Shown: one piece after another, positions 53,145-57,752 of the stretch
Position numbering within the stretch: the first letter of the stretch is position 1
How the letters are laid out: every line of letters begins with the position of its first letter
Assembly (NCBI GenBank): GCA_026419515.1
Contig: JANZZG010000070.1
Location: 1-57,752 of the forward strand
Source of the DNA: Methylophilaceae bacterium
GTDB lineage: Bacteria > Pseudomonadota > Gammaproteobacteria > Burkholderiales > Methylophilaceae
Direction of reading: 5' to 3'
DNA length: 57,752 nt
Made by a program: the position numbers and the translations under genes
The notes under the pieces: model-generated
The model's database searches: none
Seen by the model: the letters and a program-made list of their open reading frames with translations, nothing else
What the model was told of the DNA's origin: nothing

Positions 53145-53413
53145 TGACGCCAGAAACCGTGTTGACCCTCATCGAACATGCCCTCGAGATCGGGGTGCTG
53201 GTTTCCGCGCCCATGCTGGGTGCCGCACTCGTGACGGGGTTGCTGGTCAGCCTGTTTCAGGCGGCCACGCAGATCAATGAAATGACGCTCTCCTTCATCC
53301 CCAAACTGCTGGTGCTGGTCGTGGTGCTGGTAATAGCGGGGCCCTGGATGCTCGGTCTCATGGTGGATTACATGCGTCGCCTGTTCATTGGCATCCCTGG
53401 GTTGATTGGATAA
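53141..53413 (+). CDS. fliQ: Flagellar export gate protein FliQ
   Basis: 90 residues with two hydrophobic helices, typical FliQ length. It overlaps fliP by 4 nt. The core [23 protein letters not shown] is the family hallmark. Confidence 0.97.
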
Positions 53414-53425
53414 ACGCACACTTTC

Positions 53426-54211
53426 ATGTTGACGGTGACCTCCACTCAATTGGATGCATGGCTGGCAGGGTTTTTCTGGCCATTTTTCCGCATTCTGGCG
53501 CTCGTGGCGGCAGCTCCTTTGCTGGGCGCGCGTGGGATACCGGCGAGCGTCAAGATATCTTTGGCATTTGCGATCACGCTGGTGGTGGCGCCGTTGCTGC
53601 CCCCCATGCCCCAGGTAGCACCGGCTTCCCCGGCTGGACTTCTGATACTAGTGCAGCAGCTATTGATCGGTTATGGCATGGGGTTGGCAGTTCGGATTGC
53701 TTTCATCGCCGTCGAAATGGCAGGACACATCGTCGGGTTACAGATGGGGCTCGGATTCGCCACTTTCTTCGATCCCCAGAATTCGGCCCAGATTCCCATA
53801 CTGGGGCAATTCTTGAGCGTGATGGCAATGCTATTGTTTCTCGCCATCAATGGACATCTGGTGATGATCGCGGCATTGGTGGAAAGCTTCCATACCCTGC
53901 CGGTCGGTTTGCCGGTAGCAATTGACGGCTGGAAAGCCTTGGCGCTTGCCGGAAGTCAGATTTTTGCCTGGGGTGTGTTGCTGGCCTTGCCGGTTCTGGC
54001 CGCCCTTATGATGACCAATGTCGCGCTTGCCGTCCTCACTCGGGCAGCTCCGCAGCTCAACATCTTCGTGGTGGGATTTCCGATAACGCTTGCCGTCGGC
54101 CTGATCGTGCTCGCCTTGTCGTTGCCCTATTTCCTTCCCGTGTTCAACGACATGGTGCAGCACTCCATGCGCATCATGCTGAATCTGGCACAACCCGCGG
54201 CACAGCCATGA
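53426..54211 (+). CDS. fliR: Flagellar export gate protein FliR
   Basis: 261 residues with about six membrane segments (FFWPFFRILALVAAAPLLG at the start, VGFPITLAVGLIVLALSLPYFLPVF near the end). It completes the FliPQR pore. Its stop overlaps the next, unrecognised gene by 4 nt, which ties that gene to the export operon. Confidence 0.96.
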   Translation: MLTVTSTQLDAWLAGFFWPFFRILALVAAAPLLGARGIPASVKISLAFAITLVVAPLLPPMPQVAPASPAGLLILVQQLLIGYGMGLAVRIAFIAVEMAGHIVGLQMGLGFATFFDPQNSAQIPILGQFLSVMAMLLFLAINGHLVMIAALVESFHTLPVGLPVAIDGWKALALAGSQIFAWGVLLALPVLAALMMTNVALAVLTRAAPQLNIFVVGFPITLAVGLIVLALSLPYFLPVFNDMVQHSMRIMLNLAQPAAQP

Positions 54212-54873
54212 CGGATGGATGGCGTGAGACGAACGCCTTGGAGGCGTACCTCAGACTGTTACGGAGCAAGGGGGCAGATGAGGCCAATCTTTCACGTCGA
54301 CGGGAATCTTTGAGCATGTTGCTGCCCATGCTCGCTGGGCGCCCCAGCAGCGGGATGCATTATCGTGAGGCGGTCGATGTCGTCCTGGAAAAACTGGATC
54401 GCGCTGAATGGCCTTTTTTTCTGATGGTGTCGCGAGAATATTTTTACTTCTGGATGGGCGATTTGAAGGCCATCGCCGCTTTGCATAGTGAAGGAGAGTT
54501 CGAAGTCGAGCCACCTCCGCTTCCACAAGTCGAGGACAAACTCAAGGAAGTCTGGAAGCGGTTGGATACCGAAAAATTCAGTGTGGTGGAAACTTGGCCG
54601 CTTAAGGCCTATGTCGCCGCATTGCGTGAGGAAGGGGCTGACAAATCGGTGCTCGAAACTCGTGCGAAACTGGTCAAATTGCTTTTGATCCATTTGCGTG
54701 GCGTCGAAACCAAAAGCGGCAAGGCTTACCGTGCTGTGGTTGAATCGCTGTTGCCGCTTTTTGCGATGAAAGAGACGCGTTACCTTTTTCTTGCCGTGGT
54801 GCGCGAGTTTTTCTATTTCTGGATGGGAGACCCCGATGCGGCTACCCATATTCGGCTGGAACGATCGGACTGA
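54208..54873 (+). CDS. Unrecognised protein with two tandem copies of an FYFWMGD domain
   Basis: 221 residues. Two copies of one domain are clear: residues 11-85 and 132-208. Each begins with an L-x-A-Y helix and x2-G-A-D, contains an Arg-rich helix and a Y-R-x-x-V segment, and ends in V-x-R-E-[YF]-F-Y-F-W-M-G-D. The linker (86-131) is acidic then basic. There is no signal peptide or membrane helix, so it is cytoplasmic. Its start overlaps fliR by 4 nt (ATGA), and its stop is immediately adjacent, with no gap, to the convergent phosphotransferase stop. I do not recognise the family. A role in flagellar export or its control is the natural inference. Confidence 0.8.
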   Translation: MTDGWRETNALEAYLRLLRSKGADEANLSRRRESLSMLLPMLAGRPSSGMHYREAVDVVLEKLDRAEWPFFLMVSREYFYFWMGDLKAIAALHSEGEFEVEPPPLPQVEDKLKEVWKRLDTEKFSVVETWPLKAYVAALREEGADKSVLETRAKLVKLLLIHLRGVETKSGKAYRAVVESLLPLFAMKETRYLFLAVVREFFYFWMGDPDAATHIRLERSD

Positions 54874-56373
54874 TCAACGTTCGAGCTCAATTTGCTTGAG
54901 CGCCGCCTCGATGCGCTCGCACAGCGTCTTCAGAACCTTGATGCGCGCATAATATTTGTCATTGGCTTCCACGATGGTCCAGGGCGCATAGTCCGTGCTG
55001 GTGCGATCGATCATGTCGCATACGGCGATTTCATAAGCCTCCCATTTTTCACGATTACGCCAGTCTTCCTCCGTGATCTTGAAGCGTTTGAAAGGGGTGT
55101 TCTTGCGTTCTTCGAAACGTCGTAGTTGTTCGTCTTTGCTGATGTGTAGCCAGAACTTGACCACGATGTCGTTCTTGCGTGTGAGTTGCTCTTCGAAATC
55201 GTTGATCTCGCCATAGGCGCGCATCCAGTCGTATTCGGAGCAGAATCCCTCGACGCGCTCCACCAGCACGCGGCCGTACCAGGAACGGTCGAAAATGGTG
55301 AATCTGCCATGGCGTGGTACATGACGCCAAAAACGCCACAAATAAGGCTGAGCGCGTTCTTCCTCGGTGGGGGCGGCAATTGGATGCACCCTGAATAGAC
55401 GGGCGTCTATGGCTTGGGTGATACGGCGGATGCTCCCCCCCTTGCCGGCGGCATCGAAACCTTCGAATACACAGATGACCGACATTTGTTTGAAGCGGGG
55501 GTCGCGCGTCAGTAAGTTCAGCCTGCCCTGTAAAGTTTCTAGCTTTTTTTCATAATCCTTCTTGTCGATTTTTTTGGACAAATCCAGCGTGCTCAGGATA
55601 TGGAGGTTGTCGACCGGTGCGATAGGCGGAGGGGCTGTCGGTGCCTGGAGCTTGACTTTGGGTTCGTCCAGCCGTTTGCGAATGGCATCGAGTATCTGAC
55701 GGCCAACGGTGAGGTTGCGGTAGTTTGCATCATAGCCTTCGATGATCACCCAGGGCGCTGCGGCAGTACTGGTCTGGCGCAATACATGTTCCGAAATGGT
55801 GCGAAATTCGTCATACATTTTGAGGTGTTTGCGATCCAGCTCGGTGACACGCCAGCGGGTCCGAGGGTCCTTTTCCAGCTTGTCGAGCCGTTCTTTTTGC
55901 TTTTCCTTGGAGAGATGGAACCAGAATTTGAGGATCAAGGCTCCTTCATCCGTCAGCATCTTCTCGAAACGCACGATCTCGTCCAGCATCTTGGTCAGCC
56001 CTTCGTTCTTGATCTGACCGTAGACACGCCGGATGATGGGCTCGGTATACCAAGAACCGAAATAGATACCGATTCGGCCCTTGGGTGGGAGCGCGCGCCA
56101 GTAGCGCCACATGTGTGGACGCTCCGCTTCTTCGTCGGATGGGGGGCCGAAAGCATAGGTGTGCATGTGGCGCGGGTCCATCCACTCGTTTAGCAGGTTG
56201 ACGGTTTCACCTTTTCCGGCCCCATCCACGCCACCAATCAAGAGGATGACGGGAAAACTTTTGGTCTCGGCAAGATCGTACTGGGCATCCAGCAAGGCTT
56301 CACGCAGGGCTGGTACTTCCTTTTTGTAGGTTTCCTTGTCGATTTTATGACCGAGTTCTGCGGATTCGAACAT
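54874..56373 (-). CDS. pap: Polyphosphate:AMP phosphotransferase (class II PPK2)
   Basis: 499 residues with two PPK2 domains. The first (about 30-240) keeps Walker A-like GGVDGAGKGETVN and the lid SWYTEP. The second (about 290-490) keeps FEGFDAAGKGGSI and DRSWYGRVLVERVEGF. Two-domain PPK2 enzymes phosphorylate AMP to ADP using polyphosphate. ATG 56373 (MFESAELGHKIDKETY) matches the known start of the Pseudomonas enzyme; a longer reading is rejected. It may help cells recover ADP from stored phosphate. Confidence 0.93.
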   Translation of the reverse strand: MFESAELGHKIDKETYKKEVPALREALLDAQYDLAETKSFPVILLIGGVDGAGKGETVNLLNEWMDPRHMHTYAFGPPSDEEAERPHMWRYWRALPPKGRIGIYFGSWYTEPIIRRVYGQIKNEGLTKMLDEIVRFEKMLTDEGALILKFWFHLSKEKQKERLDKLEKDPRTRWRVTELDRKHLKMYDEFRTISEHVLRQTSTAAAPWVIIEGYDANYRNLTVGRQILDAIRKRLDEPKVKLQAPTAPPPIAPVDNLHILSTLDLSKKIDKKDYEKKLETLQGRLNLLTRDPRFKQMSVICVFEGFDAAGKGGSIRRITQAIDARLFRVHPIAAPTEEERAQPYLWRFWRHVPRHGRFTIFDRSWYGRVLVERVEGFCSEYDWMRAYGEINDFEEQLTRKNDIVVKFWLHISKDEQLRRFEERKNTPFKRFKITEEDWRNREKWEAYEIAVCDMIDRTSTDYAPWTIVEANDKYYARIKVLKTLCERIEAALKQIELER

Positions 56374-56495
56374 GAAGCGGACTCCGAATGCATCGGTCCA
56401 ATGGTGCAACTTTTCCCACGGGATGTAAAGCAGGAGAGTCCCTCTGGGGATCGTACCTCATAGATAGGGTTGGTGGCAGTCGGTGCCAGAGACCG

Positions 56496-57353
56496 TTATG
56501 GAGCAGATGTCTTACCGTTCTGAGTTTCCATCTCGGGGTAGCTAGCCAGTCTGATGCCGTTTTTGCCGGATTGTTTGGCTTCGTGTACCACACTGTCTAC
56601 CAGATCCAGTGCATGCCCGACGGAAGTCGGGGATTTATCGAAGGCGACCGCACCGATGCTGAAAGTGACATCCCAACGGTGTTCTCGCATGGTCTCCTCC
56701 AGTTTCCTTTTCAGTTTTTCGAGAATGATGGTGGCCTCATTACGCAAAATCAGAGGAAACAGCAGTGCGAACTCATCGCTGCCCAGACGGGCATAGAAAT
56801 CGGTCGAACGGGTGTTGCGCTCCAGCGTTTTCGCCACCGCGATGAGTAAGCTATCGCCTTCGTTGTGTCCGAGCGTATCGTTGATTTGCTTGAAATTGTC
56901 ACAACTGATGATAGCCAGGGTATAGGGGTGCCCGAAACGGTTCTGGCGGCGGATTTCCATGTTGAGGACTTCGTAGAAGCCAAGGCGGTTCATCGCGCCG
57001 GTCAGGAAATCTTCCCGGCTGATGCGTTGCAGCAAGCGTCGTGCTTCGCTGAGACGTGAGGACAGAAATGCAACGGTGAGAAACATGACGAGATAGCCCA
57101 ACGTATCCAGGTACAGGCTGATATAAGCGGAAATCGGCACGCCATGGTGGAAATCCACGGCGATCAACATCACGGTGGCCAGTAGTGAGAATGCGATGCC
57201 CCACAACAGACCACCCGTCCAGCTGATCAAGGCGACTGGAATGAAAAAATAGATTCCCGTCTGCAATGTGCCGCTGGCCAGATGGTGGAGGAGGAAAAAT
57301 ATTCCCATCAAAACCGCCGCAGCGATCTGAATCCAAATTCTCTCGTTGTCCAT
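56496..57353 (-). CDS. Membrane diguanylate cyclase-like protein (GSDEF motif)
   Basis: 285 residues. About four or five membrane segments (residues 8-105) are followed by a short linker helix and a GGDEF domain (about 115-275). The signature reads RLGSDEF, with Ser in place of the second Gly. An inhibitory-site RxxD (RSTD) lies five residues upstream, and the DNFKQINDTLGHNEGD block is intact. Activity as a cyclase is possible but unsure; it could instead be a c-di-GMP or GTP sensor. ATG 57353 follows a GGGAG ribosome site; a longer reading adds 36 residues. It is 122 nt from pap. Confidence 0.87.
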   Translation of the reverse strand: MDNERIWIQIAAAVLMGIFFLLHHLASGTLQTGIYFFIPVALISWTGGLLWGIAFSLLATVMLIAVDFHHGVPISAYISLYLDTLGYLVMFLTVAFLSSRLSEARRLLQRISREDFLTGAMNRLGFYEVLNMEIRRQNRFGHPYTLAIISCDNFKQINDTLGHNEGDSLLIAVAKTLERNTRSTDFYARLGSDEFALLFPLILRNEATIILEKLKRKLEETMREHRWDVTFSIGAVAFDKSPTSVGHALDLVDSVVHEAKQSGKNGIRLASYPEMETQNGKTSAP

Positions 57354-57752
57354 GGCAATGGCTCCCTTTTCTCCGCTTGCGGCCGCATAGAAAATCCTGA
57401 AAAACCGTCGCGAGCTGTGGCTACGCGCACGGAGTGCAGCGGCCGAGACATCACAAGGCATTAGGCGAAGGAGCGAGCCCCCTGGTTGCAGCGTGGGCTA
57501 GCGTGAATGTAGCGAATTAATCTGCAACACAGCGGCCGGAGCCCAAAAATCACCCAACGCCGCTATCCGACCGCGCAGCAGGTCAAGTCGGTGGTTTTTT
57601 TCATCTTTTACAGCTGCTCCTCCAGCATTTTGCCATCCTCGATAACATCCAGTCTATCGCCGACGGCTTTGCCCGGTTTGGCAGTGCGGTGCCGGAGAGC
57701 TTGCTGGAAGCCTTAAGGACACGCTGAAATTCGTCATGCTTCCGTCACAATT
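57354..57752. other. Right-edge region, no gene supported
   Basis: About 400 nt with no complete gene. On the plus strand a protein-like peptide can be read across a T7 run (57595-57601) only if one base is gained or lost. It ends at TGA 57725-57727. Short open stretches also exist on the minus strand (about 34 codons ending near 57609). I cannot choose between a decayed gene and chance. Confidence 0.35.

What the first reader, a model, noticed from the sequence alone, without database searches (positions are those of the whole stretch)
54208..54873. Unknown duplicated-domain protein translationally coupled to fliR
Two copies (residues 11-85 and 132-208) share the ending V-x-R-E-[YF]-F-Y-F-W-M-G-D and matching helices. 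The gene starts inside the fliR stop codon. An uncharacterised cytoplasmic protein tied to the export gate could be a new chaperone, assembly or energy-coupling factor.
Basis: partly seen in the sequence, partly recalled or inferred. Interest (0 to 1): 0.7.

Follow-up and report, generated by a model that had tools for sequence, protein, structure and literature searches.

The report
Tandem recombinase-like DNA-binding-fold protein beside fliR
The gene next to the flagellar gene fliR encodes a real, unnamed, duplicated helical protein, but it is usually found away from fliR and persists in relatives that seem to lack flagella; each half looks like the DNA-gripping domain of site-specific recombinases without the cutting domain, so it is more likely a DNA-associated regulatory or housekeeping protein than a flagellar part.

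Summary
ORF 54208-54873 (221 aa) starts in the fliR stop codon and consists of two homologous repeats (score 140; 2000 shuffles mean 27, maximum 55). No Pfam or NCBIfam model passes its cut-off for it.

The flagellar reading is mostly not supported. Over 80 named loci plus the window, fliR is adjacent in 5 of 81; downstream, an ammonium transporter gene lies within two genes in 52 and polyphosphate:AMP phosphotransferase in 15. Intact copies occur in two near-complete genomes where FliR, FliP and FliF were not found. The fliR link looks old and then lost.

AlphaFold (pLDDT 90) gives two four-helix repeats. Both resemble the core-binding (CB) domain of tyrosine recombinases: XerA Z 8.0, XerH 7.2, lambda Int 6.8 (Foldseek E above 1). 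A stacked-repeat profile aligns in register with Xer CB domains (Prob 63; 200 shuffles at most 5.4), sharing R-x-F-[FY]-x-[FY]-[WL]. There is no catalytic domain. The C repeat carries a conserved basic stripe; I propose a catalysis-free tandem-CB nucleic-acid-binding protein. Binding is inferred, not shown.

The parts
54208..54873 (+). ORF of 221 aa, tandem core-binding-like protein (unnamed family)
   Evidence: no Pfam/NCBIfam model over its cut-off
54226..54471 (+). N repeat, residues 7-88: helices 5-20, 25-36 and 39-42, 49-62, 65-83; matches XerH and lambda Int CB domain
54589..54840 (+). C repeat, residues 128-211: helices 126-141, 146-163, 171-184, 188-206; matches XerA and integron integrase CB domain
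54430..54462 (+). helix 4 signature of the N repeat, S-R-E-Y-F-Y-F-W-M-G-D, aligned with the Xer helix 4 signature W-R-G-F-F-x-[FY]-L
54796..54831 (+). helix 4 signature of the C repeat, V-V-R-E-F-F-Y-F-W-M-G-D
54643..54699 (+). helix 2 of the C repeat and its end, with the conserved basic positions R152, K154, K157, R164 (K or R in 90-95% of 120 rows)
53426..54211 (+). fliR, last gene of the fliF-fliR run; stop codon overlaps the ORF start
54874..56409 (-). polyphosphate:AMP phosphotransferase gene, convergent with the ORF with no bases between (its start codon is not certain)

Best explanation
The ORF encodes a stand-alone, apparently soluble protein made of two tandem four-helix domains, each with the fold of the core-binding (CB) domain of tyrosine recombinases, without the catalytic domain. 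Most likely it grips nucleic acid (DNA first) through the basic C repeat (helix 2 and the start of helix 4), while the more acidic N repeat serves contact with a second copy or a partner; it would act as a DNA-binding regulator or architectural/accessory factor that does not depend on flagella. In this lineage it sits at the end of the fli operon and is probably translated with fliR. Shown: the duplication, the family, the variable left-hand neighbourhood, persistence in genomes where flagellar genes were not found. Supported by prediction: the fold. Inferred only: DNA binding, the division of labour between repeats, translational coupling, the cellular role.
For: Fold: AlphaFold pLDDT 90.3, pTM 0.83. 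In the VIA-align second look, 10 of the first 11 rows are tyrosine recombinases (five different proteins: XerA, XerH, lambda Int, an integron integrase, an archaeal Xer), the other row being an uncharacterised NMR fragment, 2kob; both repeats find them (XerA Z 8.0, rmsd 2.6, 81 residues on 127-208; XerH Z 7.2 on 1-87; lambda Int Z 6.8). C repeat alone, pLDDT 92: XerA Z 8.5, integron integrase 7.3, phage Brujita integrase 7.3. Sequence: stacked repeats of 120 proteins against 29 Xer CB domains, Prob 62.6, score 27.5, 74 columns in register; 200 column shuffles mean score 10.3, maximum 17.9, Prob at most 5.4; reversed 11.3; best of 35 other families Prob 5.0. As a yardstick, Xer CB against PF22022 integrase CB domains gives only Prob 5.1, score 18.1. 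Shared signature R-x-F-[FY]-x-[FY]-[WL], and K154 at the Xer helix 2 Arg. Charge: C repeat median pI 9.2, Xer CB 9.8, N repeat 6.1. Not tied to flagella.
Against: Foldseek E-values against the PDB are above 1, and the tool warns that Z under about 13 can be a common helical arrangement; PTS enzyme I (Z 6.5) and Sendai Y3 (Z 7.0) also appear. With Methylophilaceae sequences alone the profile comparison gave nothing (Prob 3.5 and 1.9, wrong register), and the C repeat alone stayed out of register with the wider set (Prob 23.5 over 40 columns). One control family (855 columns long) reaches a raw score of 24.6, near the 27.5 of Xer, though over 51 columns and with Prob 5.0. No match to the PF22022 CB profile (Prob 1.8). 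The whole protein is about neutral (window pI 6.2, median 6.8), and the C repeat's pI varies (5.5-10.0 for the middle 80%). The N repeat lacks the basic helix 4 start. No member examined has a recognised catalytic domain, and outside the family the neighbours differ, so no process is named.
Confidence: 0.45

Rival explanations
1. The protein has the CB-like helical fold but is a protein-protein adaptor or scaffold with no nucleic-acid role; the conserved aromatic helix 4 is core packing and the basic stripe binds an acidic partner.
For: Near-neutral pI; paired adjacent two-repeat copies in family f22 fit an oligomer; PTS enzyme I, whose N-terminal helical domain docks a protein (recalled), is a structural neighbour.
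Against: Profile comparison with enzyme I gives Prob 0.11 against 62.6 for Xer; the basic positions of C-repeat helix 2 are kept in 90-95% of 120 rows.
Confidence: 0.32
2. A nitrogen-status or polyphosphate factor that works with its right-hand neighbours, the ammonium transporter or polyphosphate:AMP phosphotransferase.
For: One or both of the two genes lie within two genes in 63 of 81 loci: the transporter in 52, the phosphotransferase in 15, both in 4. The transporter gene runs in the same direction as the ORF (43 loci at +1, 9 at +2), so co-transcription is possible. Three fliR-linked loci (L031, L041, L042) have fliR, ORF, phosphotransferase and transporter in one block, so this side is better kept than the fliR side.
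Against: The window has no transporter within two genes; the phosphotransferase is convergent with the ORF; outside the family neither gene was among the neighbours recurring in three or more loci (recN, an ABC-F ATPase, serine hydroxymethyltransferase and others instead). Adjacent genes in related species may simply be inherited.
Confidence: 0.12
3. Flagellar export-gate chaperone, assembly or energy-coupling factor.
For: ATGA overlap with fliR in the window; adjacency to fliR in four other loci with gaps of 2-18 bases; the fliR-linked rows branch near the base of the family part of the tree, so the link is probably old; presence correlates with fliR (p 0.0017).
Against: Unlinked to fliR in 15 of 19 family genomes that hold both; 5 of 81 loci linked; intact in two near-complete genomes in which FliR, FliP and FliF were not found; no match in four family genomes with fliR; genome size confounds the correlation.
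Confidence: 0.07

Closest known systems
Core-binding domain of Xer-type tyrosine recombinases (XerA 5hxy, XerH 5jk0, XerC/D)
   Same: Four helices that superpose in both repeats; helix 4 signature R-x-F-[FY]-x-[FY]; K/R at the helix 2 Arg position in the C repeat
   Different: No catalytic domain; two copies in tandem; N repeat not basic; the Y-x-R-D of Xer helix 2 is not kept (R-x-K-L in the C repeat)
RitA tyrosine recombinases (PMC8138268, passages seen)
   Same: Two sequential CB domains
   Different: RitA is a recombinase of a transposable element, with a catalytic domain; the ORF has none. No sequence comparison with RitA was made
ALOG domain proteins of plants (PMC3537659, abstract and passages seen)
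   Same: A recombinase CB-type domain used on its own and proposed there to act as a transcription factor; support of the same kind (profile comparison, E. coli XerD probability 82%)
   Different: ALOG has one domain with a zinc-ribbon insert and is described from plants and eukaryotic retroposons; the ORF has two domains and no zinc-ribbon insert in its alignment, and is bacterial
Flagellar chaperones and FliR-associated factors
   Same: Gene position in the window
   Different: No family match; linkage not conserved; kept where flagellar genes were not found

Membership tests
Tyrosine recombinase | C-terminal catalytic domain with the RKHRH pentad and Tyr nucleophile (as described in PMC8138268) | tested here: not met
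   the 221 aa are taken up by two four-helix repeats; the Pfam, NCBIfam and PHROGs scans of the window protein and of the aligned members list no family named as a recombinase
Core-binding (integrase N-terminal) domain superfamily | four-helix CB fold | tested here: met
   both repeats, Z up to 8.0 and 8.5, on predicted models; Foldseek E above 1, so met at fold level with reservations
Core-binding (integrase N-terminal) domain superfamily | profile similarity to accepted members | tested here: inconclusive
   Prob 62.6 to Xer CB; Prob 1.8 to PF22022 CB; Prob 3.5 and 1.9 in the first attempt; Pfam scans of members list no integrase family
Core-binding (integrase N-terminal) domain superfamily | binds DNA in the major groove | not testable with these tools
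   only charge patterns are available
Flagellar export-gate factor | conserved linkage to fli genes | tested here: not met
   5 of 81 loci; 4 of 19 family genomes with both genes
Flagellar export-gate factor | absent where flagella are absent | tested here: not met
   intact in G006 and G028, where FliR, FliP and FliF were not found
Flagellar export-gate factor | binds export substrate or gate subunit | not testable with these tools
   needs pull-down

The most novel reading that the evidence does not exclude
A family of proteins of Methylophilaceae and other families of the same order, without a model in the Pfam and NCBIfam copies searched, in which the DNA-gripping half of a tyrosine recombinase was duplicated, lost its catalytic partner and became a free-standing DNA-binding regulator or chromosome-organising factor: a bacterial counterpart of the plant ALOG factors.
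Probability: 0.4. Interest if true: 0.62.

Novelty: new variant of a known kind. Interest (0 to 1): 0.45.

Why it matters
It replaces a tempting but poorly supported lead (a new export-gate factor) with a testable one. [quoted passage not shown] a conserved chromosomal family built only of tandem recombinase core-binding domains would be an unusual source of DNA-binding proteins in bacteria and would parallel the recruitment proposed for ALOG in plants. No model in the protein-family libraries tried covers the members scanned, so a curated model would name the family in many genomes.

Tried and rejected
Single-protein scan of genome contigs found no relative; the alignment-based scan did. Viral contigs: 39 pattern matches, no relative, so no sign of a phage gene there. 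PDB sequence search with the family profile: best E 0.13, to parts of corticotropin-releasing factor receptors, taken as chance. The only Pfam line for the window protein is DUF6341, E 0.19, 11.8 bits against a cut-off of 26.4. Pfam, NCBIfam and PHROGs lines for other members are scattered, one or two members each, and weak (best E 0.0014). PADLOC, window protein only: none. First profile comparison with Xer, Methylophilaceae sequences only, failed; it worked only after adding 41 rows (33 from outside the family) and stacking the repeats, so the set-up was chosen after a failure. Adding the PF22022 domains to the Xer profile lowers the result to Prob 45.3. PTS enzyme I as an alternative relative: Prob 0.11. 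Promoter/terminator scan 53400-55000: no promoter-like site, 2 terminator-like sites against 2.3 expected. Foldseek against viral models: best E 0.43, several integrases among the weak hits. Literature: five searches of one open-access library; listings seen were 9 of 9 papers, 0, 12 of 301, 8 of 28, 8 of 8. No listed title or abstract start deals with this family; most papers were not listed, so absence from print is not shown. Passages of PMC5357621 were seen and not used. The copy in G032 (flagellar markers not found) is split between two frames and is not counted as intact. PF14659 was searched and not used further. Neighbour counts rest on a mechanical longest-ORF gene call; three of the 80 loci (L036, L091, L106) hold under 510 bases upstream of the gene, so their upstream neighbour is cut short. 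Rows dropped: L102 (contains N) and L106 (partial) from profiles and tree; L196-L203 from the tree; L158 (misplaced stretch) from the 30 Xer stretches; one of 30 from the PF22022 set; only 25 of the 30 enzyme I loci were used.

Full report
What is there. The window ends with a flagellar run, fliF (43416) to fliR (53426-54211); fliF, fliN, fliP, fliQ and fliR were identified by NCBIfam, the others from their place and sequence. The ORF 54208-54873 begins with an ATG whose last bases form the fliR stop codon. It ends directly against the end of a convergent polyphosphate:AMP phosphotransferase gene (TIGR03708). Its two halves are homologous beyond doubt: score 140 against a shuffled maximum of 55 in 2000 trials, repeat profile against repeat profile E 1.4e-16.

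Family and distribution. A protein search found matches in 25 of 61 related genomes: 23 of 37 in the window's own family and 2 of 24 elsewhere in the order. In the named collection 113 places encoded a relative and the best 80 were kept, selected by one peptide pattern, so the set is not an unbiased sample; where the record title names a genus, order or family it is Methylophilaceae, Methylophilales or one of their genera (Methylobacillus, Methylovorus, Methylotenera, Methylophilus, Novimethylophilus), the rest being labelled only as bacterium, Betaproteobacteria, proteobacterium or Pseudomonadota. That the window's own genome is of this family follows from this and is not given by a tool. With the family profile, 35 of 399 genomes drawn from the order matched, 29 of them outside the window's family, and 2 of 369 drawn from the class, one of them the window's own genome. 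Some genomes carry several copies (four matches in G004), and family f22 carries two adjacent diverged copies. No Pfam or NCBIfam model fits the members scanned in a consistent way.

Gene order. In the 80 named loci plus the window, fliR is next to the gene in 5 of 81. On the other side the ammonium transporter gene lies within two genes in 52 of 81, the phosphotransferase in 15, both in 4, and neither these nor fliR in 18 (transporter identity). All five fliR-linked loci have the phosphotransferase, and three of them also the transporter. A PilT/PilU-type ATPase gene is upstream and divergent in 18 loci, four of which also have the phosphotransferase (identity). In the tree of 112 proteins the non-family sequences form one side of a branch (99/93). 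Next to it, within the family, the fliR-linked rows form two successive groups, the window with L032 (99/91) and L042, L031, L041 (97/85), with two long-branched rows (L093, L050) still deeper on weaker support. If the non-family rows are the outgroup, the simplest reading is that the order fliR, gene, phosphotransferase is old in the family and that fliR was later lost from this place; the right-hand side was kept better than the fliR side.

Is it flagellar? Of 19 family genomes with both fliR and the gene, 4 have them adjacent (positions). Two genomes of one contig each, 99% and 98% complete (G006, G028), have an intact copy, and FliR, FliP and FliF were not found in them; G012 (76% complete) is similar, and in G032 the copy is split between frames. 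Four family genomes with fliR gave no match. Presence correlates with fliR (19, 4, 4, 10; p 0.0017), but genomes with the gene are also much larger (2.8 against 1.6 Mb), and among genomes of 2 Mb or more the table is 18, 3, 3, 1. The evidence goes against a dedicated flagellar role, though not against co-expression with the fli operon in this lineage.

Fold. AlphaFold with the window protein and 42 proteins of named loci gave pLDDT 90.3 with two repeats of four helices. Foldseek alone is weak (best E 1.7, lambda integrase). The VIA-align second look at Foldseek's own list placed tyrosine recombinases in ten of the first eleven rows, on both repeats; they are entries of five proteins, and the eleventh row is 2kob, an uncharacterised NMR fragment. 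The C repeat predicted alone (pLDDT 92) again has XerA first (Z 8.5, 81 residues, rmsd 2.6), followed by an integron integrase and the Brujita integrase, with Sendai Y3, enzyme I and lambda Int further down. The XerA paper describes the CB domain as two perpendicular hairpins of antiparallel helices (PMC3646895, passages seen). The tool's own caution, that such Z values occur for common helical arrangements, stands.

Sequence relation. With Methylophilaceae sequences only, no relation to the Xer CB domain was seen. With 120 sequences including the non-family members, the N repeat aligned over 74 columns in register (Prob 33.7) while the C repeat did not. The stacked repeats gave Prob 62.6 over 74 columns, against a maximum of 5.4 in 200 column shuffles and 5.0 in 35 other families, one of which, a much longer protein, reached a raw score of 24.6 against 27.5. 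The pair Xer and PF22022 integrase CB, related by recall, reaches only Prob 5.1 in the same set-up, and the repeats show nothing against PF22022 (Prob 1.8). So a weak score is expected within this domain class, and this one is comparatively good, but homology is not settled.

How it may work. Recombinase CB domains contact the DNA major groove (PMC3537659, passage seen; that helices 2 and 4 are the main contacts in Cre and XerD is recalled). In the C repeat, helix 2 positions R152, K154, K157 and R164 are K or R in 90-95% of rows and the position of R191, at the start of helix 4, in 80%; its median pI is 9.2 against 9.8 for Xer CB and 6.1 for the N repeat, with wide spread. I therefore propose nucleic-acid binding by the C repeat and a partner or dimer contact by the N repeat. 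Nothing here measures binding. CB domains used without catalysis have a proposed precedent in the plant ALOG proteins (PMC3537659, abstract and passages), and tandem CB domains one in RitA recombinases (PMC8138268, passages).

Verdict.

Noticed in passing
window 54870-54880: The ORF and the polyphosphate:AMP phosphotransferase gene are convergent with no bases between their stop codons; no terminator-like site was found at the junction.
   Followed up: partly
L031, L041, L042: Three fliR-linked loci keep fliR, the ORF, the phosphotransferase gene and the ammonium transporter gene in one block; in many other Methylophilaceae loci only the ORF and the transporter remain together.
   Followed up: partly
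L021 (G032) 1268-1920: In this genome, where FliR, FliP and FliF were not found, the homologue is split between two frames: recent decay or a sequencing error.
   Followed up: no
L172-L174, L178-L180, L191, L193: In family f22 two diverged two-repeat copies lie side by side, which suggests a hetero-oligomer.
   Followed up: partly
L200 6852-7685: A divergent paralogue in G004 carries an N-terminal extension of about 60 residues of unknown nature.
   Followed up: no
L171, L175-L177, L183, L184, L192: Outside Methylophilaceae, recN lies upstream on the same strand as the homologue in 7 loci (name for L184).
   Followed up: partly
window 56496-57461: A diguanylate cyclase (GGDEF) gene lies beyond the phosphotransferase gene on the same strand.
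   Followed up: no
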